Below are positions 22,301-39,344 of a stretch of DNA of 41,271 bases, one piece after another (positions within the stretch are counted from its first letter, which is position 1; the number at the start of each line of letters is the position of its first letter). Source of the stretch: an uncultured Clostridia bacterium (lineage in GTDB: Bacteria; Bacillota; Clostridia; Christensenellales; Borkfalkiaceae); assembly GCA_944341075.1 (NCBI GenBank), contig CALVLV010000017.1:1-41271 (forward strand). The letters are read 5' to 3'. The position numbers were made by a program, and so were the translations under genes. The notes under the pieces are model-generated. The model searched no databases. It worked only from the letters and a program-made list of their open reading frames with translations, and had not been told where the DNA came from.

Positions 22301-22329
22301 TTGCCTTTGGCAAAAAATATTAGTATAAT
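22301..22329 (+). promoter_or_regulatory. Promoter of the dehydrogenase gene
   Basis: TTGCCT (22301-22306), a 17-base spacer and TATAAT (22324-22329). Transcription would start near 22336, only a few bases before the ATG at 22340, so the mRNA is leaderless or nearly so. Confidence 0.6.
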
Positions 22330-22339
22330 GAAAGCAGAA

Positions 22340-23359
22340 ATGGATAACTGGATTTTAAAAAACACCGCGATGCTTGTCAACGACCCCGTAAAGGAGCAGC
22401 CCGTTGCGGCAGACGAGGTGAAGGTAAAAGTTACTTATGTGCTGGCATCCAACTACGATGCAGTGCTGTATTCGGGCGACGGCGGGGCGAAATATCCCAA
22501 GACGATAGGCCGCTTTGCCGTGGGCAGGGTGACTGAGGCAGGCGCCGGGTGTTACGGTGTAGAACGCAATATGCGCGTTCTGCTTCAGCCGACGCGCAGT
22601 TGCGGCAACTGCCTTGAATGCAAGACGGGCAAGGAAGAATACTGCTCCTCCCCGGCAATAGCGGGCAGGGACTTTGACGGCTTTTTGCGCGACTTTGTTG
22701 TGTGCAAATATACTGACGTGGCGCCGCTGCCCGATTCGGTGGGCGACACAGAGGCGCTGTGCACCGAGGCGGTGGCGCTTGCCGAAAAGGTGTACGACAG
22801 GCTGGAACTGCCCGCGGGCAGCAGGGTTGCAGTGATAGGCGGCAACTTTGCCGGCAACATAATGGCGCAGGTGCTGCAATACCACAAGCTTATACCCATT
22901 GTTATAGACAACAGCCCCGTGGCGCTTGACAAGGCGCGCGGCTGCGGGATATACTACTCTTTTGCCGCCGACGACGACCTGCACGAAAACATAAAAGAGG
23001 CCACCAGCGGTATGCTGTGCGACGCGGCGATATATACCACCTGCTCAAGGCTTGACCCCGCGCTTACAATACGCGTGCTTTCAGAGGGCAAGCAGGCAGT
23101 GCTGGCGGGTTTTGCACCCATATCGTTCAACATACCCGCGCGCGAACTGTGCGAAAAGAACGCCTCGGTATTCTGCGCCATGAACGGCTACGGCTATACA
23201 GACACGGCCATAAACCTTCTGGTGCACAAGGCTGTAGATATTTCGGTATTCGAAAAAGAGACGCTTACCGAGTTCGACCCCAACGCCATATACAAGACTT
23301 TGGGCGACGTGAGCACCGTGCGCAGCGGCAAGATGACGATATTTAAGTTGATAATCTAA
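22340..23359 (+). CDS. Zinc-type medium-chain dehydrogenase
   Basis: A 339-residue protein of the medium-chain dehydrogenase/reductase superfamily. The structural-zinc cysteines are all present (C88, C91, C94, C102 in CGNCLECKTGKEEYC), and the nucleotide-binding Rossmann turn is VAVIGGNFAGNIMAQ. The catalytic-zinc ligands are less clear: the usual GHE segment of the N-terminal domain is replaced around KYPKTIGRFAVGRV, so it may act without catalytic zinc. The substrate is unknown. The ATG at 22340 is chosen because the upstream ATG at 22328 lies inside the -10 box; no Shine-Dalgarno is present. It is a single gene followed by a long structured intergenic region. Confidence 0.82.
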   Translation: MDNWILKNTAMLVNDPVKEQPVAADEVKVKVTYVLASNYDAVLYSGDGGAKYPKTIGRFAVGRVTEAGAGCYGVERNMRVLLQPTRSCGNCLECKTGKEEYCSSPAIAGRDFDGFLRDFVVCKYTDVAPLPDSVGDTEALCTEAVALAEKVYDRLELPAGSRVAVIGGNFAGNIMAQVLQYHKLIPIVIDNSPVALDKARGCGIYYSFAADDDLHENIKEATSGMLCDAAIYTTCSRLDPALTIRVLSEGKQAVLAGFAPISFNIPARELCEKNASVFCAMNGYGYTDTAINLLVHKAVDISVFEKETLTEFDPNAIYKTLGDVSTVRSGKMTIFKLII

Positions 23360-23363
23360 AGAG

Positions 23364-23690
23364 TTCACGAATTTGACGGCGGGCCGCGCCGTTAAAATTC
23401 CGTGAGTTTGAGGGGCCTTTTCGCGCGTCGTGCGACAACAACCGACGCGCTCGGCGGGACGAACGAGCCGCTTCATAACACAACGGGCACCCGTTGTGTG
23501 TGGCGAAGTGAGATGAGTGAGCGCATACGTCCTTGCGCGAACGGTGACCGCGTGAGGAGCGCAAGCGACGCTACTTTGCGGAGGGTTCCCTTTGGGAAAC
23601 CGCAAAACCGCCATGTTTTTACCTTAATGGCGGTGAGACGGTGACACGGGCAAACAAAGTGCGACCGTAGCGAAGGGGTTCGGTTACACG
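23364..23690 (+). repeat. Structured element sharing its first stem with the five-stem family
   Basis: Starts TTCACGAATTT, stem ACGGC/GCCGT, AAAATTCCGTGAGTTTGAGG, matching the head of the elements at 30191 and 38640. It then holds several perfect stems: GCGCGTCG/CGACGCGC, ACAACGGG/CCCGTTGT, CTTGCGC/GCGCAAG, CCGCCAT/ATGGCGG, and an outer pair CGCTAC/GTAGCG. It follows the dehydrogenase stop codon by 4 bases. Confidence 0.55.
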
Positions 23691-30052: not shown

Positions 30053-30169
30053 TCAGCCCTGGCGCTGCTTATGGCTCTTGTTCTTGGAGCAGATCACCAT
30101 AACTTTGCCGTTCCTTTTGATGATCTTGCACTTATCGCACATAGGCTTTACAGAAGGTCTAACTTTCAT
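30053..30169 (-). CDS. rpmJ: Ribosomal protein L36 (zinc type)
   Basis: A 38-residue bL36, [19 protein letters not shown] and so on, with zinc ligands C11, C14, C27 and H33. The start is the ATG at 30167-30169. It sits between infA and rpsM as usual, but 620 bases of repeats separate it from infA. Confidence 0.95.
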
Positions 30170-30190: not shown

Positions 30191-30382
30191 TTCACAAATT
30201 TTTCGTTCGGGCCGCGCCCGAAAAATTTCGTGAGTTTGAGAAACCAGGTTTCTCTGGCGGCATTTTTAGCGCCCACCATTATAGGAATGCCGCCATTCAC
30301 TTCCGGTGAGCCGGCTTGCGCCGCAAATGTAGACGCGCTTATCGGCGAACTAAATTCGCCTTGCGCACGTTAATTATTTTAA
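30191..30382 (+). repeat. Five-stem pseudoknotted element (copy 1)
   Basis: Stems in order: P1 CACAAATTTTTCG (30193-30205)/CGAAAAATTTCGTG (30219-30232); P2 GAGAAACC/GGTTTCTC (30238-30254); P3 TGGCGGCATT/AATGCCGCCA (30255-30264, 30286-30295); P4 CCGG-tgag-CCGG (30303-30314); P5 GGCGAA/TTCGCC (30344-30360); then TTGCGCACGTTAATTATTTT. The P3 loop (AGCGC 30268-30272, CATT 30277-30280) can pair with AATG (30326-30329) and GCGCT (30335-30339). The copy at 38640 has the same plan with different arms. Confidence 0.75.
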
Positions 30383-30410
30383 TAGTTCACGAAAAGTCTT
30401 TCCATAATCG

Positions 30411-30480
30411 TGCCTCCCTTAATAAGGGAGGTGGTATATTCGAACTTGTGAGAATATACCGGTGGGATTCGGCAAATCTT
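30411..30480. repeat. GGGAGG-type repeat (copy 3)
   Basis: GCCTCCCTTAATAAGGGAGG, a second perfect stem GGTATATTC/GAATATACC, then CGGTGGGATT. It matches the first half of the copies at 13247 and 23714, with a wholly different but paired second stem. Confidence 0.65.
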
Positions 30481-30552
30481 TTTCCGTGAGAATTTTTTGC
30501 GGAGCGGCAGTATGCCGCGCAGTCGAAAAATCTTTTCGCTTCCGCCGATGAA

Positions 30553-30789
30553 AACTTCAGAGAAGCAAGCAGAGCGCTTCTTATGCCCTGATAACCCTTG
30601 AAGAAACGAGCAAAATCCCCCCTGGCTTGCCTTTGGCAAGCCTTCCCCCCTTTGGAAAGGGAGGCAAGAGGAGCGTGCGGAACGTTGCGAAGGAGTTTAC
30701 TTAGAGGTAAATGACCGAAGGTTGCCGCAACGCAACAATGCTATGCGACGCTTATATGAAGTTTAGCGGTTAGCGTAGAATGTTGCGGT
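30553..30789 (+). repeat. GA-stem element (copy 2, interrupted)
   Basis: Starts ACTTCAGAGAAGCAA and resumes at GGAGCGTGCGGAA after an inserted hairpin unit (about 30611-30668). The core is GCGTGCGG (30673-30680), GAAGGAG (30689-30695), TTTAC/GTAAA (30696-30711), TGACCGA and CCGCAA (30725-30730). It ends at the infA stop codon. Confidence 0.65.
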
Positions 30790-31011
30790 TTACGATTTGC
30801 TGCGCCACGTTATACGCCCCTTAGTCAGGTCGTACGGGCTCATCTCCAGCTTTACCATGTCGCCTTCTATAATTCTTATATAGTTCATGCGAAGTTTGCC
30901 GGAAATATAGGCCGTTATAACGTAGCCGTTTGCAAGCTGAACTTTGAAATTGGCGTTGGGAAGGCACTCTATTACCTTGCCCTCTGCTTCAATTACGTCG
31001 TTTTTAGACAC
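30790..31011 (-). CDS. infA: Translation initiation factor IF-1
   Basis: A 73-residue OB-fold factor binding the 30S A site: [22 protein letters not shown], then [20 protein letters not shown] and [21 protein letters not shown]. It starts with GTG (31009-31011) immediately after the stop codon of the KOW gene, with GGAGGAA ahead. Confidence 0.96.
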
Positions 31012-31335
31012 TTAATCGTTCCTCCGCTGAGTTTCTGCGGCCCCTGCGGGCGCGCTGTCTGCCGCGGCGCCGTAGTTTTTGAGCGCCGAATATACCTCGC
31101 TGTCGAACACTTTTCCGCCGCTTTCAAACTTTGCCGCGATAGACGGTACGCAATCTGGCAGCAGCCTTACGTGTTTCAAGCTCTTTTTTTTGGGCGAGGC
31201 CAGCTTTTTATACTTGCCGTCGCATACCAGTACGAAGCCGCCTTCAGGCACGCCGCATATCAGGTAATACCGCCCCTCGTCCCTGCCCTGTGTGCTCACG
31301 CACACGCCGCCGGGCACAGCCTTTTTTACTTTCAT
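31012..31335 (-). CDS. KOW-domain RNA-binding protein
   Basis: A 107-residue protein of the KOW/L14e-like family that lies between map and infA in many Clostridia. The KOW strand pair is at the start (VPGGVCVSTQGRDEGRYYLI, FVLVCDGKYKKLASPKKKSLKHVRLL). The C-terminal 25 residues are Ala-rich. A role in translation or RNA binding is inferred from the fold and context only. The ATG at 31333-31335 lies 8 bases after the map stop codon without a good ribosome binding site, suggesting translational coupling. Confidence 0.85.
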   Translation of the reverse strand: MKVKKAVPGGVCVSTQGRDEGRYYLICGVPEGGFVLVCDGKYKKLASPKKKSLKHVRLLPDCVPSIAAKFESGGKVFDSEVYSALKNYGAAADSAPAGAAETQRRND

Positions 31336-31343
31336 GTTACATT

Positions 31344-32093
31344 TTACAGCGTGAGTATCTCTACGCCGTCTTCCGTGATGAGCACGGTATTTTCGTAATG
31401 CGCGGCGGGCTTGCCGTCTGCCGTGCGTATCGTCCAGCCGTCTTCGGGATCCTGCCATACCCTCCACGTGCCCATGTTTATCATGGGTTCGATGCAGATG
31501 GTCATGCCCGCCTTAAGGCGGAGGCCGGTGCCCCTGCGGCCGTAGTTGGGCACGGCGGGATCTTCATGCATATCCCTGCCGATGCCGTGGCCGGTGAGCG
31601 CCCTTACAACGCCGTACCCGAACGATTCGGCGTAAGTTTGAACGGCGTAGCCTATGTCGTACAGCGGCGTACCTGCGCGCAGGCCTTCGACTGCTTTAAA
31701 AAAGCACTCTTCGGTGACCTTTACAAGCTTGCGCTTTCCCTCCGACACGTTGCCGATGAGGAAGGTGCGGGCGGCGTCGCCGTTGTAGCCGTTCTTTTCC
31801 ACGGTTATGTCCACGCTTACGATGTCGCCGTCTACGAGTATTACGTCGTCTGACGGTATGCCGTGCACCACCACGTCGTTGACCGATACGCACGCGCTGG
31901 CGGGGAAACCTTCGTACCCCAGGCTTGAGGGCGTTGCGCCGCAGGAGGTTATGTACCTGTATACCAGGTCGTCCACCTCCTTGGTGGTCATGCCGGCCTT
32001 TATGTTTTTGCCTACAAAGTCAAGCGTTTCTTTGACTATCCTGCAGGATTCGCGCATGAGCGCTATCTCCTGCGGGGACTTTATATGGATCAT
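31344..32093 (-). CDS. map: Methionine aminopeptidase, type I
   Basis: A 249-residue enzyme removing the initiator methionine from nascent proteins. The metal ligands are visible: D in VSVDITVEKNGYNGDAART (two Asp), H in TGHGIGRDMHE, E in CIEPMINMG and the final E in ENTVLITEDGVEIL. It follows adk by one base and precedes the KOW gene. Confidence 0.97.
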   Translation of the reverse strand: MIHIKSPQEIALMRESCRIVKETLDFVGKNIKAGMTTKEVDDLVYRYITSCGATPSSLGYEGFPASACVSVNDVVVHGIPSDDVILVDGDIVSVDITVEKNGYNGDAARTFLIGNVSEGKRKLVKVTEECFFKAVEGLRAGTPLYDIGYAVQTYAESFGYGVVRALTGHGIGRDMHEDPAVPNYGRRGTGLRLKAGMTICIEPMINMGTWRVWQDPEDGWTIRTADGKPAAHYENTVLITEDGVEILTL

Positions 32094-32094
32094 A

Positions 32095-32736
32095 TCACTT
32101 ATTGAAGTTATCGAGCTTTTCGCAGATCATGGCGAAGACCTCTTCGGGGGAGGCGTTGCCGCACTCCACAGTGAGGAGCTTGCCCTGAGCCGCATAGTAG
32201 TCGATGAGGGGTGCCGTCTGAGTATTGTAAGTCTCCAGCCTGGCGCCGACCGTTTCGGGGTTGTCGTCCGCCCTCTGGTAGAGGGGCCTGCCGCACTTAT
32301 CGCAAGTGGTTTTGCCGCCGAGCGTAGAGATGTGGTAGCTTGCACCGCAGCTGCATACGCGCCTGCCGCAGATCCTGTCCATGAGCAGGGCGGTGTCTAC
32401 GGAGATGTTCACGCACGCGTCCACGCGGGCGAATTCATCGAGCTGCTGTGCCTGGAAGAGGTTGCGGGGGAAACCGTCGAGCATGAAGCCCGCTTTTACA
32501 TCGTCCTCCTCCAGCCTGTTTTTGACTATTTCGCAGGTGACCTCGTCGGGGACGAGTTTGCCCGCGTCTATATAGCTTTTGGCTACCTTGCCGATGGGCG
32601 TGCCGCCCTTGATGTTTGCCCTGAATATATCGCCTGTAGAGATATGAACGAGGCCGTACTTGCCTTCAAGGAAGGCCGCCTGAGTGCCTTTGCCTGCGCC
32701 GGGGGCGCCCAACAAAACAATATTCATATTTTTCAC
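32095..32736 (-). CDS. adk: Adenylate kinase with zinc lid
   Basis: A 213-residue kinase interconverting AMP, ADP and ATP. The P-loop is GAPGAGKGT and the AMP site includes TGDIFRANI and GFPRNLFQA. The lid holds four cysteines (C128, C130, C145, C148), as in Gram-positive zinc-lid enzymes, but the first pair is C-x-C rather than the usual C-x2-C. It follows secY after a gap of 219 bases containing repeats. Confidence 0.97.
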   Translation of the reverse strand: MKNMNIVLLGAPGAGKGTQAAFLEGKYGLVHISTGDIFRANIKGGTPIGKVAKSYIDAGKLVPDEVTCEIVKNRLEEDDVKAGFMLDGFPRNLFQAQQLDEFARVDACVNISVDTALLMDRICGRRVCSCGASYHISTLGGKTTCDKCGRPLYQRADDNPETVGARLETYNTQTAPLIDYYAAQGKLLTVECGNASPEEVFAMICEKLDNFNK

Positions 32737-32760
32737 ACCCTATATTATAACTGCTTGCGC

Positions 32761-32808
32761 CGTAAAAGTGCAAGGCCGAATTTAGTTCGGCCGTTAAGTA
32801 CTTTTACG
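32761..32808. repeat. Double-stem hairpin related to the five-stem element
   Basis: Outer stem CGTAAAAGT/ACTTTTACG (32761-32769, 32800-32808) and inner stem GGCCGAA-tttag-TTCGGCC (32774-32792). The inner hairpin with its GTGCAAGG lead is the inverse complement of stem P5 and its tail in the element at 30191, with the same loop. Confidence 0.55.
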
Positions 32809-32835
32809 ACCAAAATCAATTTACCGCACCCAATC

Positions 32836-32955
32836 GGTGCAGAGAAGCAAGCAAGACGCGGAGCGTGCGGAATGCTGCGAAGGAGTGTACACAGACGTAC
32901 ATGACCGAGCAGACCCGCAAGCGCGACAACGTATTGCGCCGCTTATATGTGCCGA
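32836..32955 (+). repeat. GA-stem element (copy 3)
   Basis: Core: GCGTGCGG (32863-32870)/CCGCAAGC (32915-32922); CTGC (32875-32878)/GCAG (32909-32912); GAAGGAG opposite TGACCGA; TGTAC (32886-32890)/GTACA (32897-32901). Compared with copy 1, TTTAC/GTAAA became TGTAC/GTACA and GCGC/GCGC became CTGC/GCAG: paired changes. It ends at the secY stop codon. Confidence 0.7.
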
Positions 32956-34323
32956 TTACTTGAGGAAGCCTTTGTAATTCTTCATCATCAGCTGGCTCTG
33001 CAACTGCTTTTCAAGTTCGAGCGCAACCGATACGACGATGAGGATACCCGTGGTGGAGAACACGCTGAGAAGGCTGGTATCGGACGTTATGTTCAGCGAT
33101 ACGACTATCATGCTGAGTATGGAGGGAATGAACGCAACGAGCGAAAGATATATGGCGCCGAAAAGCGTTATCCTGTTGGATATCCTCTTTAAATACTCTG
33201 CGGTGGGCTTGCCGGGGCGGATGCCCTGGATGAAGCCGCCGTTCTGCTGAATGGTCTTGGATACGTCCTCCGGGTTGAACTGCATCGACGAATAGAAGAA
33301 CGCGAATGCGAAAATGAGCAGGCAGAGAACTACCATGTATATGAGCTGGCCGTACCAATAGGGGGACGAACCCGAGAACCAGTTGGTAACGCCCTGCTCG
33401 AAGCCGCTGCCCGGCCAGAACAGGCTGGCGAGCATGCCGGGGAAGCTGATGAGCGCGAACGCGAAGATGAGGGGCATTACGCCGCCGCCCGCGATCCTTA
33501 TGGGTATCACGGTGGACTGGCCGCCATACATCTTGCGGCCCTTTACCTGCTTTGCGTACTGCACGGGGATGCGCCTTTCGGAGAGGTCTACCGCAACGAT
33601 GGCGGTAAATTCCAGAAGGGTGAGCACCACGAAGCCGATGAGCAGCCACAGGGGCTCAAGGCCGTGTTCGCCGCTGAACAGTTCTGCGAACTTTTCAACG
33701 ATGGCGATGCCCGCCGTGGAGATGATGCCGACAAAGATTATCAGCGATATGCCGTTGCCTACGCCGTATTCGGTGATCCTTTCGCCGATGAACATTACGA
33801 GCATTGCGCCCGCGGTGTATACGACTACGAGGAACACGCCTGCTATCCACGTTGCGGCCTCGTCTGAAATGATGCCGCTTGCGCCGCCGCCGAACATTAC
33901 GGTGTTGATGGCGTCTTCGCCTGCGGCTATGTTGACTATGATGCCTATAGCCTGAGCTATTGCAAGGGCTATGGTTACGTAACGGGTTATCTGGGCGATC
34001 TTCCTGCGGCCCTCTTCGCCTTCACGCGAAAGGCGCTCGAGAGCGGGTATGCCCACCGTTAAAAGCTGGATTATGATGGACGCGTTGATGTACGGGCTGA
34101 TACCCAATGCAAACAGCGTTGCGTTGGAAAGCGAGGAACCCGTAATGGACGACATCAGTTCGAGGAAGGAATACTGCTCTATGGCATCGCCGAATACGGT
34201 TGAATCTATGCCCGGGACGGGGATATAGCAACCGATCCTGAAAACCAGCAGAAGGAGCAGGGTTATCCATATCTTCTTGCGGATTTCCTTCACTTTAAAA
34301 CAATTCTTTATTGTTTCAAACAT
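32956..34323 (-). CDS. secY: Protein translocase subunit SecY
   Basis: A 455-residue ten-helix channel of the Sec translocon. Visible are the N-terminal CFKVKEIRKKIWIT start, the plug-side region PGIDSTVFGDA, INASIIIQLLTVGIPALERL in helix 2, the long cytoplasmic loop with VQYAKQVKGRKMYGG, and GFIQGIRPGKPTAEYL between helices 8 and 9. It ends the ribosomal block before adk-map. Confidence 0.97.
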   Translation of the reverse strand: MFETIKNCFKVKEIRKKIWITLLLLLVFRIGCYIPVPGIDSTVFGDAIEQYSFLELMSSITGSSLSNATLFALGISPYINASIIIQLLTVGIPALERLSREGEEGRRKIAQITRYVTIALAIAQAIGIIVNIAAGEDAINTVMFGGGASGIISDEAATWIAGVFLVVVYTAGAMLVMFIGERITEYGVGNGISLIIFVGIISTAGIAIVEKFAELFSGEHGLEPLWLLIGFVVLTLLEFTAIVAVDLSERRIPVQYAKQVKGRKMYGGQSTVIPIRIAGGGVMPLIFAFALISFPGMLASLFWPGSGFEQGVTNWFSGSSPYWYGQLIYMVVLCLLIFAFAFFYSSMQFNPEDVSKTIQQNGGFIQGIRPGKPTAEYLKRISNRITLFGAIYLSLVAFIPSILSMIVVSLNITSDTSLLSVFSTTGILIVVSVALELEKQLQSQLMMKNYKGFLK

Positions 34324-34366
34324 TTTAACCCCTTTGCAGCGAAAACTTCCGCCGCGGTTGAATTAA

Positions 34367-34813
34367 TTAAAGGACTTCCGCCGTGCCGCCTGCCTTTTCT
34401 ATTGCCGCCTTGGCAGATTCAGAAAATTTAGCCGCCTTAACGGTTATCGCATTTTTAAGCTCGCCGTTGCCCAGGACTTTGAGGCCCGAGTTGTGCTTGA
34501 TGTACTTGGCGAGGTTGTTTTCGACCACGTAGTCGTAGTCTACCACCGTGCCTGCGGGCACGTTTTCAAGCTGGGAAAGGTTTACGATGAGGTAGCAGGT
34601 AGACCACTTGTTGTGAAAGCCGCGCTTGGGCACGCGTCTTGCGATGGGCATCTGGCCGCCTTCGAATCCGGGACGTACGCCGCCGCCCGAACGCGCCCAC
34701 TGGCCCTTGTGGCCCTTGCCGCTGGTCTTGCCCGTGCCGCTGCCTATGCCGCGGCCAAGCCTTTTGACTGCCTTTTTGGAACCCTCTGCAGGGGATAAAG
34801 TATCAATTCTCAT
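34367..34813 (-). CDS. rplO: Ribosomal protein L15
   Basis: A 148-residue uL15 with the glycine- and basic-rich start KRLGRGIGSGTGKTSGKGHKG and FEGGQMPIARRVPKRGF, typical in order and length. Confidence 0.96.
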   Translation of the reverse strand: MRIDTLSPAEGSKKAVKRLGRGIGSGTGKTSGKGHKGQWARSGGGVRPGFEGGQMPIARRVPKRGFHNKWSTCYLIVNLSQLENVPAGTVVDYDYVVENNLAKYIKHNSGLKVLGNGELKNAITVKAAKFSESAKAAIEKAGGTAEVL

Positions 34814-34829
34814 AACCTTGTATGCCTCC

Positions 34830-35003
34830 TTATACTTTTTCCACCTTGAGAAGGTGCGAAACTTTTTTGATCTGACCCATTATTGCGGGGTTTTCTTCAA
34901 AAACCTTTTCCGAGCGGATCTTTTTTAAACCGAGCGCGGCAACGGTGGCCTTTACGGACTTGACTTCGTTGCAGTAGCTCTTTATAAGCGTTACTTTTAT
35001 CAT
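34830..35003 (-). CDS. rpmD: Ribosomal protein L30
   Basis: A 57-residue uL30, starting MIKVTLIKSYCN and ending HLLKVEKV. GGAGG is 7 bases before the ATG at 35001-35003. It lies between rpsE and rplO as usual. Confidence 0.94.
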   Translation of the reverse strand: MIKVTLIKSYCNEVKSVKATVAALGLKKIRSEKVFEENPAIMGQIKKVSHLLKVEKV

Positions 35004-35020
35004 TGCATTGCCTCCGTGGG

Positions 35021-35557
35021 TTAACCTAAGAGCTCTTCGGCAGTCTTGCCGCGCGCTGCTGCTATCTGCTCGGCGGTCTTAAGCTCCCTGAGCCCCTCTA
35101 TGGCTGCCTTTACGCAGTTGATGGGGTTGTTGGTGCCGTGCGACTTGGTACGTATATCCTTTATGCCCACGGCCTCCATAACGGCGCGCACGGGGCCGCC
35201 GGCTATAACGCCGGTACCTTCTTCGGCGGGCATCATGAGTACCTTGCCCCTGCCGAACACGCCGGTAACGGTGTGGGGGATAGAGGTATCCTTCATGTTC
35301 ACCTTGAACATGTTCTTCTTGGCCTGGGCGGTGGCCTTTTCTATTGCCACGGGAACTTCCTTGGCCTTGCCTACGCCGCAGCCGATGGAGCCCTTGCCGT
35401 CGCCTACCACAACCAGCGCCGCAAAGCGCATGTTGCGGCCGCCTTTAACGGTTTTGGATACCCTGTTTACCTGTATGAGCTTGCTGATGATGCCGTCGTC
35501 TTCAGCCCTCTTGAACCTTGATTCCCTTCTTGCAGGTCTTTCTTTCTTTTCTTCCAT
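35021..35557 (-). CDS. rpsE: Ribosomal protein S5
   Basis: A 178-residue uS5 of the decoding-site region: [38 protein letters not shown] and [17 protein letters not shown]. The N-terminus carries a short charged extension ([13 protein letters not shown]). Confidence 0.97.
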
Positions 35558-35569
35558 TTTGTCAGCTCC

Positions 35570-35938
35570 TTAGAAATTAAGTCCGGCTTCCCTTGCGCCT
35601 TCGGCAACCGCCTGCACCCTGCCGGTGTACAGGTAGCCGCCCCTGTCGAAAACGACTTCCTTGACGCCCTTTTCAAGGGCGCGCTCTGCAGCCGTTTTGC
35701 CTACAAGCTTAGCAGCTTCCGTCTTGGTAAGATCTGCAACCCGGGCCTTGAGCTCCTTTTCCATTGTAGATGCGGAAACGAGCGTTACGCCCTTTACGTC
35801 GTCAATCACCTGAACGTAGATGTGGTTGAGGCTGCGGTATACGCAGAAACGGGGGGTTTCTGCCGTGCCCGAGATCTTCTTCCTCACGCGCGCATGGCGG
35901 CGCTTGCGTTCGGTGTTCTTATCTATCATCTTAATCAT
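35570..35938 (-). CDS. rplR: Ribosomal protein L18
   Basis: A 122-residue uL18 that binds 5S r[23 protein letters not shown], then [10 protein letters not shown] and [20 protein letters not shown]. Confidence 0.97.
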
Positions 35939-36023
35939 ATATGTCTCCTTTGAGCAATCCGCCGCAACTTTTACGCGGCGAGTCGTTCGGATATCCCCTC
36001 CGCAGGGGAACTGCTACCCGAAA

Positions 36024-36572
36024 TTACTTCTTGCCCTTGCCTCCCGTCTTGCCTTCCTTGCGCTCGATCACTTCGTCGCTGTATGCGATGCCGTAACCGT
36101 GGTAAGGTTCGGGAACTCTTATGTTGCGGATGTCTGCGGCGGTCTGGCCGACGAGCGTCTTATCTATGCCGCTGACTACGATTTCGTTGGCGCTGGGGCA
36201 TTCGAGCTTTACGCCTGCGGGCTCGGCAAACTCTACGGGGTGCGAAAAACCTACGTTGAGCACTACCTTGTTGCCCTGCTTGGCGACCTTCCAGCCTACG
36301 CCGTTTACCTTGAGGCTCTTTTTATAGCCTTCGGTCACGCCCACCACCATATTGTGGATGAGCGCCCTGTAGAGGCCGTGCTTTGCGTCAAGCTCCATTG
36401 AATCGTGCTTTTTGAGGACGAGCACTTCGTTGCCCTCTACCTTTACATCTATATCGCCCGCTATCTTCTGGCTGAGCGTGCCCTTTGCGCCCTTTACGGT
36501 TACGGTGTCGCCGTCGAAGCTGACGGTAACGCCTGCGGGCAGGTTCACGGGTAATTTACCGATTCTTGACAT
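36024..36572 (-). CDS. rplF: Ribosomal protein L6
   Basis: A 182-residue uL6: SRIGKLPVNLPAGV start, two L6 domains, and the RVPEPYHGYGIAYSDEVIERK signature near the end. It is separated from rplR by 85 bases with no gene. Confidence 0.97.
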   Translation of the reverse strand: MSRIGKLPVNLPAGVTVSFDGDTVTVKGAKGTLSQKIAGDIDVKVEGNEVLVLKKHDSMELDAKHGLYRALIHNMVVGVTEGYKKSLKVNGVGWKVAKQGNKVVLNVGFSHPVEFAEPAGVKLECPSANEIVVSGIDKTLVGQTAADIRNIRVPEPYHGYGIAYSDEVIERKEGKTGGKGKK

Positions 36573-36585
36573 TTAAATTACCTCC

Positions 36586-36978
36586 TTACCAGATATAGCA
36601 GAGCACTTCGCCGCCTACGTTTGCGGCCTTTGCCTGCTTATCCGTCATTATACCCTTGTTGGTGGAAATAACGGCAATACCCATGCCGTTCATTACCTTG
36701 GGCATGTTTTCTACGCCGGCATAGGTGCGCAGGCCGGGCTTGGATACCCTTTTGAGTCCGTTGATGACGGGCTGCTTTTTGCCTGCGTACTTGAGGGTGA
36801 TGACCAGCTTGCCGTTGAAGCCGTCTTCAACCAGCTTTACGTCTGATACAAAGCCCTCTGCGAGCATTATGTCTGCGATGGCCTTCTTCATGTTGGATGA
36901 AGGGATCTCCACCGTCTCTTTGTTTACCATGAGCGCGTTTCTTACGCGTGTGAGCATATCTGCTATGGGATCGGTCAT
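36586..36978 (-). CDS. rpsH: Ribosomal protein S8
   Basis: A 130-residue uS8: [18 protein letters not shown] start, and [19 protein letters not shown] near the end, which contacts 16S rRNA. Confidence 0.97.
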
Positions 36979-36990
36979 CTTGGCACCTCC

Positions 36991-37176
36991 TTACCAGCTC
37001 GACTTTTTAACGCCGGGAATTTCGCCCTTGTATGCAAGGTTGCGGAAGCAGATACGGCATACGCCGTATTTGCGGAGCACGGCGTGCGGCCTGCCGCAGA
37101 TAGAGCACCTTGTGTATGCCCTGGTAGAAAATTTAGCGGGCCTCTGCTGCTTGTTTATCATTGATTTCTTTGCCAT
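36991..37176 (-). CDS. rpsZ: Ribosomal protein S14, zinc type (S14Z)
   Basis: A 61-residue uS14 of the short zinc form, with C24, C27, C40 and C43 ([20 protein letters not shown]). It lies between rplE and rpsH, the usual place in Bacillota. Confidence 0.97.
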
Positions 37177-37187
37177 AATCTATCTCC

Positions 37188-37757
37188 TTACCTCTTGAAG
37201 GGCATACCCATGGCCCTTAAAAGCTCTCTTGCTTCTTCATCGGTCTTTGCGGTGGTGACAAAGCATATGTCCATGCCGCGGATCTTTTCAACCTGGTCGT
37301 ACTGGATCTCGGGGAATATAAGCTGTTCCTTTACGCCCATGCAGTAGTTGCCCCTGCCGTCGAAGCTGTCTGTGGGAACGCCGCGGAAGTCGCGCACGCG
37401 GGGAAGCGCGATGGATACGAGCTTATCGTAGAAGTCGTACATCATCTTGCCGCGCAGCGTAACCTTTATGCCCACGGTCATGCCCTCGCGCACCTTGAAG
37501 TTTGCAACGGACTTTTTGGCAACGGTGAGCACGGGCTGCTGGCCGGTTATCTGCTTTATTTCGCCCTGCGTGGTCTGAATGGACTTTGCGTTGTCCTTTA
37601 TGTCGCCGAGGCCGGTGTTGATGACTATTTTCACCAGCTTGGGAACCTGCATCACATTGGTGTAGCCGAATTTTTTGGTAAGGTAGGGAACGACCTCTTC
37701 CGCATACTGCTTGGCTACTCTGCTTTTATATACTTTTTCCGTAGTTGCTTTTGCCAT
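37188..37757 (-). CDS. rplE: Ribosomal protein L5
   Basis: A 189-residue uL5 that anchors 5S r[42 protein letters not shown] and [17 protein letters not shown]. It is about ten residues longer at the N-terminus than the commonest forms. Confidence 0.97.
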
Positions 37758-37768
37758 ATTCGTTCACC

Positions 37769-38194
37769 TTACTCCTCAGCCTTTTCTTCCTGCGCCTTGG
37801 CCTCTGCCTTAGCGGCGCGCTTGCGGGTACGCTTTTTAGGCTCTTCCTTCTTGGCCTCTTTGCCAGCCTTCTTTGCGGTGTAAGCCTTGTCGAGCACGGC
37901 GCCGCACTTGGGGCACACGCGCACACGCTTGCCGTCCTGCAGGCCGCTCTTTACCCTTACCGCCTTGTCGCAGGCGGGGCAGACTACCATTACGTTAGAT
38001 ACGTCTATGGCGCCTTCCTTTTCTATTATCTTAGAAACTTCGTTGCCGCGGCGCGCCTTCTGCGCCTTGTGCTGTGTGTTTATTCCTTCTACGGTTACCT
38101 TTCCGCTCTTGGGAGAAGTGGCGATTACCTTGCCCTGCTTGCCCGCATACTTACCGGTGATAACCAGAACATTATCATTCAATTTTACGTTCAT
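37769..38194 (-). CDS. rplX: Ribosomal protein L24 with long charged tail
   Basis: A 141-residue uL24. The KOW-containing core (VLVITGKYAGKQGKVIATSP) and a zinc-ribbon pair (CPACDK and CPKCGAV) fill residues 1 to about 105. The remaining 36 residues are almost only Lys, Ala, Glu and Arg, a low-complexity tail not found in the usual 100-105 residue protein. Confidence 0.95.
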   Translation of the reverse strand: MNVKLNDNVLVITGKYAGKQGKVIATSPKSGKVTVEGINTQHKAQKARRGNEVSKIIEKEGAIDVSNVMVVCPACDKAVRVKSGLQDGKRVRVCPKCGAVLDKAYTAKKAGKEAKKEEPKKRTRKRAAKAEAKAQEEKAEE

Positions 38195-38209
38195 AGCTTT
38201 AACTTCTCC

Positions 38210-38578
38210 TTAAAGAACTTCGGGCGCAAGGGAGATTATCTTCATATAGTTCTTTTCTCTCAGTTCCCTTGCGATCGGGCCGAAGATACGGGTGCCTCTC
38301 GGCTCCTTGTTCTGATTTATTATAACGGCTGCGTTGTCGTCGAACCTGATGTATGTGCCGTCGCCGCGCCTGATGCCCTTGGTGCTGCGCACGATAACGG
38401 CCTTTACCACGTCGCCCTTTTTAACGGCGCCGCCGGGGGTCGCAGTCTTGACGGAGCAGACGATAACGTCGCCTATGTTGCCCGTCTTGCGGAAGCTGCC
38501 GCCCAGCACCTTTATGCACATGAGCTCTTTTGCGCCGCTGTTGTCTGCGGCCTTGAGCCTAGTCTGGGGTTGTATCAT
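38210..38578 (-). CDS. rplN: Ribosomal protein L14
   Basis: A 122-residue uL14: [36 protein letters not shown] and the end [23 protein letters not shown]. The gap upstream to rpsQ is 508 bases instead of the few bases usual in this operon. Confidence 0.97.
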
Positions 38579-38639
38579 ATAAATTCTCCTAAATTATTTT
38601 AATGTAATAATCATTTATGAACTTACAACATAATCTTTT

Positions 38640-38826
38640 TTCACGAAATTTTCGCCTTGGCCGAATGCGAAAATTTCCGTGAGTTTGAGGGACGCCGTCC
38701 CTCTTTGCGCAATCTTCAGCGCCCCCGATTATTTTATTGCGCAAATTCACCCTGCTGAGGCGCAGGTATGCGCAAATCGGGGCCTGCTGCGGCGGGAAAC
38801 CCGCCTTGCAACGTGATTTATTTTAA
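38640..38826 (+). repeat. Five-stem pseudoknotted element (copy 2)
   Basis: P1 CACGAAATTTTCGC (38642-38655)/GCGAAAATTTCCGTG (38667-38681); P2 GAGGGAC/GTCCCTC (38687-38703); P3 TTTGCGCAAT/ATTGCGCAAA (38704-38713, 38736-38745); P4 CCTGC/GCAGG around TGAGGC (38751-38766); P5 GGCGGG/CCCGCC (38791-38805); then TTGCAACGTGATTTATTTTAA. The P3 loop GCCCCGATT (38722-38730) pairs perfectly with AATCGGGGC (38775-38783), and AGC (38718-38720) with GCT (38786-38788). Confidence 0.75.
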
Positions 38827-38922
38827 ACGTCCGCGCAATTCCCACAGAAATATTGCCGTACAACGCGTTTTCGTGAAGTTATCCAGCGGATTGCCCCGCC
38901 GTGCGCAAATTATCACGCTTAA

Positions 38923-38931
38923 ATTATATCA
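38923..38931 (-). promoter_or_regulatory. Possible extended -10 promoter ahead of rplN
   Basis: On the minus strand TG-a-TATAAT (38931-38923). No matching -35 box is seen. If used, it would start a separate spc transcript about 340 bases upstream of rplN. Confidence 0.35.
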
Positions 38932-39086
38932 AGCGTTTTACCGCCGCTTTTACCGCGGAGAGCGAAGCGGACGGCCGCGCATTGGCCGGCATGAAAACAA
39001 TCGTGGAAACAACTTTTTATAAAAAGGCGCATGCCGGGGCGCCCGTATGGCCGCGCCCGTGCAATTGCCGCGGAAATATGCCGCGA

Positions 39087-39344
39087 TTACTTTGCCTTTT
39101 CTACTATTTCCGCTACCCTCCAGTTCTTGTCTTTGGAGAGCTTGCGGGTCTCTACTATGCGAACCTTGTCGCCCACGCCGCAGGCGTTTTCTTCGTCGTG
39201 CGCCTTGAACTTGGTGGTCTTGGTTATCGTCTTTTTATACAGGGGGTGCTTGCTCTTTTCGGTAACGGCAACAACTACCGTTTTATCCATCTTGTCGGAT
39301 ACCACAACACCCGTTCTTTCCTTTCTGAGAGTAGTCCTTTCCAT
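39087..39344 (-). CDS. rpsQ: Ribosomal protein S17
   Basis: An 85-residue uS17, [20 protein letters not shown] start and an OB-fold with [19 protein letters not shown] and [17 protein letters not shown]. Confidence 0.96.

What the first reader, a model, noticed from the sequence alone, without database searches (positions are those of the whole stretch)
30191..38826. Five-stem, pseudoknotted repeat with full covariation, twice inside the ribosomal superoperon
Elements at 30191-30382 and 38640-38826 share five hairpins in the same order. Arms differ by paired changes (P2 GAGAAACC/GGTTTCTC against GAGGGAC/GTCCCTC; P3 TGGCGGCATT/AATGCCGCCA against TTTGCGCAAT/ATTGCGCAAA; P5 GGCGAA/TTCGCC against GGCGGG/CCCGCC), while loops and joints are conserved (AGCGCCC-x-C-x-ATTAT, TGAG, TTGC..ACGT..TTATTTTAA). 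The P3 loop pairs with the P4-P5 joint in both copies: 9 bp plus 3 bp in one, 4 plus 5 bp in the other. This is the signature of a selected structure, either a structured RNA or a DNA-hairpin mobile element. I know no named class that fits.
Basis: partly seen in the sequence, partly recalled or inferred. Interest (0 to 1): 0.87.

Follow-up and report, generated by a model that had tools for sequence, protein, structure and literature searches.

The report
Five-hairpin mobile DNA repeat
A 190-base repeat scattered through the genomes of uncultured gut bacteria folds into five hairpins whose matching arms change together, and the pattern of changes suggests that the folding matters more in DNA than in RNA, which makes it look like a small jumping DNA element whose moving enzyme is still unknown.

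Summary
The repeat is real and high-copy. Two full copies lie at 30191-30382 and 38640-38826; a broken third starts at 23364. A covariance model from 16 copies matches 80 of 93 genomes of the genus; in a sample of 396 genomes of the order, 24 match, 23 of them in one family. All five hairpins show paired changes (34 of 46 pairs). The proposed pseudoknot does not hold: a copy's own loop and joint pair no better than those of different copies. The stems look DNA-like: G-U is 1.1-2.0% of cells, against 6.7-7.8% in RNase P of the same genus counted the same way, and pairs with more G-U than A-C (9-15) hardly outnumber the reverse (7-11), against 11-29 to 1-5 in RNase P. This is a leaning, not proof. 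Elements are present or absent at the same sites in related species, form tandem arrays, and 29 of 106 start within 10 nt of a stop codon. A shorter family shares both ends. Best reading: a REP/MITE-like non-autonomous element handled as folded single-stranded DNA. Y1, Y2, TnpB, IS110 and reverse-transcriptase searches gave no match in this genome, so the mover is unknown.

The parts
30191..30382 (+). full element, copy 1, between rpmJ and infA, antisense to the operon
   Evidence: 181.3 bits
30191..30233 (+). P1 hairpin TTCAC...C-GTGA with bulged C on the 3' arm
   Evidence: bulge C in 90 of 95 copies
30238..30254 (+). P2 hairpin
30255..30295 (+). P3 hairpin with conserved GCCC-containing loop
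30312..30323 (+). P4 hairpin
30335..30366 (+). P5 hairpin (outer GCGC/GCGC and inner stem)
30367..30382 (+). A+T-rich 3' tail ending TTATTTTAA
30386..30489 (+). P1-like hairpin of the shorter family B directly after the tail, split by another inserted repeat
   Evidence: read by eye; family B described
38640..38826 (+). full element, copy 2, between rplN and rpsQ, antisense to the operon
   Evidence: 172.3 bits
38640..38682 (+). P1 hairpin of copy 2
38687..38703 (+). P2 hairpin of copy 2
38704..38745 (+). P3 hairpin of copy 2
38760..38773 (+). P4 hairpin of copy 2
38785..38810 (+). P5 hairpin of copy 2
23364..23483 (+). broken third copy: P1 and the start of P2, then another inserted repeat; begins 4 nt after the TAA of the ORF 22301-23359
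   Evidence: (25.7 bits)
30056..30169 (-). rpmJ (L36), whose start lies about 20 nt from the left end of copy 1
30790..31011 (-). infA
38210..38578 (-). rplN (L14)
39087..39344 (-). rpsQ (S17)

Best explanation
This is a non-autonomous mobile DNA element of about 190 bp, high in copy number and spread through the genus, whose five hairpins are kept as folded single-stranded DNA. Shown: many copies; mixed orientation to genes; presence or absence at orthologous sites; tandem arrays; a shorter family with the same kind of ends; compensatory change that is almost wholly Watson-Crick; one conserved unpaired C that makes P1 asymmetric. Inferred: an enzyme acting in trans recognises the hairpins on one strand (P1 and its bulged C at the left end, P5 and the tail at the right) and inserts the element at A+T-rich sites a few bases after TAA-like sequence, often right behind a stop codon. 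Because the tail itself ends in TTTTAA, each insertion would recreate a target, which would explain tandem arrays. The enzyme is not identified.
For: Copy number and spread. Covariation on all helices. DNA-like change: G-U 1.1-2.0% in 89 distinct copies against 6.7-7.8% in 30 RNase P RNAs, same rules. Insertion polymorphism: the infA-rpmJ spacer is 23-25 nt in three species, 135 nt without an element in one, and 520-623 nt with an element in three; in the rpsQ-rplN spacer the model finds the element in G000 and G115, a weak match in G029 (17.8 bits, read as family B-like) and none at E<=0.01 in G002, G006, G014, G089, G107. Position: 29 of 106 copies start 0-10 nt after a stop codon. Left flank: TAA ending 3-5 nt before the element in 38 of 97 copies, G at -1 in 51%. 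Tandem arrays. Shared ends of family B. Bulged C: 90 of 95.
Against: No autonomous copy was found. The tested enzyme families do not match this genome, and no element lies in the 20 Y1 and 4 TnpB loci examined. Over all 45 model pairs, in the 38 that covary, G-U (69 cells) exceeds A-C (17), as RNA would; two positions supply 45 of the 74 G-U cells of all 45 pairs. No clear target-site duplication and no real terminal inverted repeat. TAA among the hugged stops is not significantly above stop usage (p 0.08). Conserved loops also fit a bound host protein. 13 of 93 genus genomes gave no match.
Confidence: 0.57

Rival explanations
1. A structured non-coding RNA or cis-regulatory RNA that happens to be multi-copy.
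For: Strong covariation and conserved loops; among covarying pairs of the full model G-U exceeds A-C, 69 to 17 cells; with an energy-based structure of 27 copies G-U is 3.2% and A-C 1.1% on the + strand; P1 looks like a bidirectional terminator in some copies (by eye).
Against: G-U is three to six times rarer than in RNase P of the genus and comes mostly from two positions; no pseudoknot covariation; orientation to genes is mixed; both window copies are antisense to the operon; no Rfam class.
Confidence: 0.14
2. A host-function DNA repeat (REP/BIME-like: protein or gyrase binding, transcription termination or mRNA end protection) spread by recombination and duplication, its perfect palindromes kept by template switching in replication.
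For: Left ends often sit just behind stop codons or just before ribosome-binding sites; palindromes are nearly pure Watson-Crick; adjacent units are sometimes near-identical duplications.
Against: Template switching alone does not conserve loops and joints; copies with different arms occupy the same site in sister species; matches per genome range from none to the scoring cap within one genus.
Confidence: 0.21
3. A remnant of a guide-RNA or retro-element (TnpB omega RNA, IS110 bridge RNA, group II intron or retron RNA).
For: Five stems in about 190 nt, mobile context.
Against: TnpB over cut-off in 4 of 93 genomes, IS110 in 1 of 93, reverse transcriptase in 30 of 93; no match to any of them in the window's genome.
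Confidence: 0.05

Closest known systems
REP / REPIN elements with RAYT (TnpA_REP) transposases
   Same: High-copy intergenic palindromes; an irregular stem base that helps give strand polarity; compensatory changes in hairpins (passages read of PMC8266576, and PMC3116915).
   Different: Five hairpins in about 190 bp instead of 20-50 nt units or doublets; none of GTAG, GGAG, CGTC in the last 8 nt before 89 elements; no Y1 match in this genome.
IS200/IS605-derived miniature elements (single-strand transposition)
   Same: A hairpin at each end; family B, as read in two examples, is just two end hairpins and a tail; preference for a short A+T-rich motif on the left.
   Different: Nine of the twelve Y1 loci viewed look like ordinary IS200 with other ends (the script caught a wrong frame in the other three); no Y1 match in G000; three extra internal hairpins.
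Integron attC sites
   Same: Sequence-variable folded sites with unpaired bases, lying right behind a stop codon (features recalled, not from a call).
   Different: No invariant GTT core (recalled as defining): the P1 foot is TTCAC/GTGA, TTAAC/GTTA or TTCGT in different copies; integron integrase not searched.
BOX elements of Streptococcus pneumoniae
   Same: Modular, hairpin-rich, intergenic, multi-copy (recalled; only a search listing seen).
   Different: Different taxon; no boxA-B-C pattern was looked for and no sequence comparison was made.

Membership tests
REP/REPIN-RAYT | palindrome with irregular stem or bulge | tested here: met
   bulged C in 90 of 95 copies
REP/REPIN-RAYT | GTAG, GGAG or CGTC motif at the 5' foot | tested here: not met
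   0 of 89 copies for each in the last 8 nt of the left flank
REP/REPIN-RAYT | RAYT (Y1) gene in the genome | tested here: not met
   PF01797 in 28 of 93 genomes, none in G000, which is 94.7% complete
IS200/IS605-type miniature element | hairpin at each end | tested here: met
IS200/IS605-type miniature element | autonomous relative with Y1 and the same ends | tested here: not met
   no R1 match in 20 Y1 and 4 TnpB loci; other ends in 9 of 12 loci viewed, 3 not readable
IS200/IS605-type miniature element | insertion without target duplication | tested here: inconclusive
   weak excess of shared flanks, 4% of permutations reach it
Classic MITE | terminal inverted repeats | tested here: not met
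   end identity 0.50 against 0.41 with the left end shuffled; both ends A+T-rich
Structured non-coding RNA | G-U changes clearly in excess of A-C | tested here: inconclusive
   G-U 1.1-2.0%, A-C 0.4-1.4% depending on the rule, against 6.7-7.8% and 0.8-2.2% in RNase P
Structured non-coding RNA | discrete transcript | not testable with these tools
   no expression data
Integron attC | integron integrase present | not tested
TnpB omega RNA / IS110 bridge RNA | cognate nuclease or transposase gene | tested here: not met
   over cut-off in 4 of 93 and 1 of 93 genomes, no match in G000

The most novel reading that the evidence does not exclude
A new class of mobile element that moves as a folded five-hairpin single strand of DNA, recognised by shape rather than sequence by an enzyme outside the Y1 and Y2 families, and that lands behind stop codons and behind its own copies to build arrays.
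Probability: 0.23. Interest if true: 0.8.

Novelty: new variant of a known kind. Interest (0 to 1): 0.55.

Why it matters
It looks like a natural case of strong covariation that does not point to an RNA. Pipelines that take covariation as proof of RNA would call it a new RNA class; the level of G-U change, set against an RNase P control from the same genomes, argues otherwise. If the mobile reading holds, a genus-wide, shape-recognised element with no known mover points to an undescribed enzyme and offers a small natural system for recognition of folded single-stranded DNA.

Tried and rejected
Pseudoknot between the P3 loop and the P4-P5 joint: no support over 88 copies.

P1 as a locus-fixed repeat with exchangeable cores (cassette or CRISPR-like): 9 adjacent unit pairs have P1 identity from 0.57 to 0.95, overlapping 406 non-adjacent pairs of the own genome (mean 0.80); the 0.57 comes from a unit whose P1 was cut wrongly by the script. 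No general rule.

Y1, TnpB, IS110, reverse transcriptase and Y2 as mover: 28, 4, 1, 30 and 1 of 93 genus genomes over cut-off, none in G000. The Y2 search rang in 0 of 14 control genomes, so it has no positive control.

Autonomous copy: partial hits of the own genome, of which I viewed six loci, look by eye like elements with other repeats inserted or broken ends, not elements with an enzyme gene. A script looking for widely spaced ends in the held loci gave seven rows, none followed to an enzyme.

Phage, plasmid and viral collections: no match.

Print: search listings for Coproplasma, for Borkfalkia plus repeat, and for Christensenellales with mobile-element terms showed no description of these repeats in the titles and abstract starts listed (the last two list 10 of 15 and 10 of 4,662 papers); no paper of those listings was opened. 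Listings only were seen. Passages only were read of PMC8266576 and PMC3116915. The library lacks most subscription journals.

Rows and pairs dropped: one search was given the window and 89 of the 120 loci then held; searches used the best 95 of its 126 rows (89 distinct); the best 112 (106 distinct); 97 of 106; 88 of 95; 89 of 106. In one search I counted 35 of the 45 model pairs, and I picked them by eye after seeing the per-pair counts, which flattered my reading (Watson-Crick 3039, G-U 15, A-C 13, other 36). replace it with all 45 pairs and with a rule on 'other' cells alone. The RNase P figure (8.2% and 0.6%) used pairs chosen by folding energy, which favours G-U: the reverse complement of RNase P gave 7.3% and 1.9%. 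Searches use Rfam's pairs instead.
Full report
Observation. Copy 1 is 30191-30382 and copy 2 is 38640-38826, both on the + strand. The flanking genes are rpmJ and infA, and rplN and rpsQ, all on the - strand (Pfam; positions). Both copies are thus antisense to the operon. A broken third copy starts at 23364, four bases after a TAA that ends an ORF with alcohol dehydrogenase domains. There is no Rfam match in the window at gathering score. At E<=1 in ten sources one weak match overlaps an element (Leu_leader, E 0.48, 25.8 bits against a gathering score of 50), which I take as chance.

Copy number and range. BLAST of copy 1 in the own genome gives 53 rows at E<=10, 43 of them at E<1e-5, some being pieces of one copy. 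BLAST at E<=0.001 matches 18 of 61 genomes, all in the same genus; the 24 genomes of other families give none. A covariance model from 16 copies matches 80 of 93 genus genomes at E<=0.01; 13 of the 93 reach the limit of 27 scored candidates, so true numbers there may be higher. In a sample of 396 genomes of the order, 24 match: 11 of the genus, 12 of other genera of the same family, and one marginal match in another family at E 0.003; only 6 candidates a genome were scored, so weak matches may be missed. A consensus pattern in a named collection hits 13 stretches: six of Candidatus Coproplasma (C. stercoripullorum, C. stercoravium) and seven of uncultured Clostridia assemblies. Phages, plasmids and viral contigs gave none.

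Structure. On the 16-copy alignment 90.4% of cells form a standard pair; shuffled partners give 70.5% and slid partners at most 48.5%. 34 of 46 pairs change on both sides, and each of the six helix blocks contains such pairs. The count of further pair types is not above the shuffles. P1 carries one unpaired C on its 3' arm, in 90 of 95 copies, with nothing opposite in 94 of 95, so the hairpin has a polarity. The pseudoknot fails: over 88 copies the longest loop-joint helix with G-U is 5.49 for own pairs, 5.65 for cross pairs and 5.42 for a shuffled loop; duplex energy is -5.90 for own and -6.34 for cross pairs. A short stem that could form around TTCAC...GTGAG before P4 was not counted.

RNA or DNA. 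A paired RNA tolerates G-U; the opposite strand would show the same changes as A-C. The fair comparison is: Rfam's pairs for 30 RNase P RNAs of the genus, the 45 model pairs for 89 distinct copies of the element, one rule for both (a ceiling on cells that are neither Watson-Crick, G-U nor A-C). RNase P: G-U 6.7-7.8%, A-C 0.8-2.2%, and pairs with more G-U outnumber pairs with more A-C by 11-29 to 1-5. Element: G-U 1.1-2.0%, A-C 0.4-1.4%, and 9-15 pairs to 7-11. So G-U is far rarer in the element although it is the more divergent set (65% against 82% mean identity), and the strand imbalance by pair is small. Against this: among the 38 covarying pairs of the full model G-U is 69 cells and A-C 17; 45 of the 74 G-U cells of all 45 pairs come from two positions, the inner end of P1 (24) and one pair of inner P5 (21), and 20 of 57 A-C cells from one pair of P5. 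These look like features of subfamilies or of alignment register, which I did not prove. With an energy-based structure of 27 copies G-U is 3.2% and A-C 1.1% on the + strand, 1.3% and 1.3% on the - strand; RNase P gives 8.2% and 0.6%, and 7.3% and 1.9% on its reverse complement. My earlier hand-picked set of 35 pairs (15 G-U, 13 A-C) overstated the balance. I conclude that the stems lean to DNA-level constraint; no expression data were available.

Mobility. In the infA-rpmJ spacer, G006, G014 and G107 have only 23-25 bases; G002 has 135 and no model match; G000, G029 and G115 have 520-623 bases with an element whose left end lies just before the rpmJ ribosome-binding site. The arms of the three differ, so I cannot tell independent insertions from one old insertion later replaced. 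In the rpsQ-rplN spacer the model finds the element in G000 and G115, a weak match in G029 (17.8 bits; by eye a family B-like pair of hairpins) and nothing at E<=0.01 in G002, G006, G014, G089 and G107. Tandem arrays of period 193 and 188 occur, and several more genomes show abutting matches. A shorter family B of 121 bases, read in two examples, has the same kind of left hairpin, right hairpin and tail and nothing between. It matches 8 of 8 genomes asked at E<=0.1, strongly in five, and in several places abuts the longer element (coordinates).

Placement. Of 106 distinct copies, 29 begin 0-10 nt after a stop codon (22 TAA, 7 TGA). In the other count, 54 copies have a stop and 41 a start as nearest gene end on the left; 27 of the 54 stops lie 0-10 nt away. 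On the right, 66 of 92 distances exceed 100 nt. Genes there are long open frames, not curated calls. In 97 left flanks, TAA ends 3-5 nt before the element in 38 and the base before it is G in 51%. Among 76 copies not hugging a stop, TAA ends 4-5 nt before the element in 16, against about 3.5 a position on average, or 7 for two. The excess of TAA over other stops at the hugged ends is not significant (p 0.08). I read this as a weak TAA-like target that coincides with stop codons, where insertion does least harm; the tail TTTTAA would then make each copy a target for the next. That is inference.

Mover. Y1 is in 28 of 93 genus genomes, TnpB over cut-off in 4, IS110 over cut-off in 1, reverse transcriptase in 30, Y2 over cut-off in 1; none has a match in G000. 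G000 is 94.7% complete, so a missed gene is possible. The model finds no element in 20 Y1 and 4 TnpB loci, and nine of twelve Y1 loci viewed look like ordinary IS200. No terminal inverted repeat and no convincing target duplication were found.

Verdict. Its covariation is genuine, its pseudoknot is not, and the better-supported of the two readings it offered is the DNA-hairpin mobile element. It works like REP/REPIN or IS200/IS605 miniature elements but fails their defining tests of motif and enzyme, so I do not file it there.

Noticed in passing
window 38882-39009 (- strand): A separate conserved block in the rpsQ-rplN spacer, shared by four species, that RNAalifold folds as one long imperfect hairpin; a candidate ribosomal-protein leader RNA upstream of rplN, with no Rfam match.
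   Followed up: partly
L234, L235, L236, L237, L239 (own genome): Larger versions of the element carry another hairpin repeat of about 130 bases inserted at the same point between the P4 joint and P5 (by eye); other copies (L027, L030, L034) carry one near P2 (by eye).
   Followed up: partly
L042 930-1103 and L085 1354-1488: In two species an element lies between a T-box-like leader (64.6 bits, below the gathering score of 93) or an L10 leader (62.7 bits, above 44) and the start of the next gene.
   Followed up: no
window 13306, 17303, 19456, 23764; 13508 and 23859: A four-copy dispersed repeat (TTTTTTGAGATTTCTCCACTC...; two of its copies only 62-69% alike) and a two-copy repeat: the genome holds several intergenic repeat families.
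   Followed up: no
L013, L024, L028: A further inserted repeat bounded by AAGCCGAGTGC-type inverted ends lies in the P3 loop of two copies (by eye).
   Followed up: no
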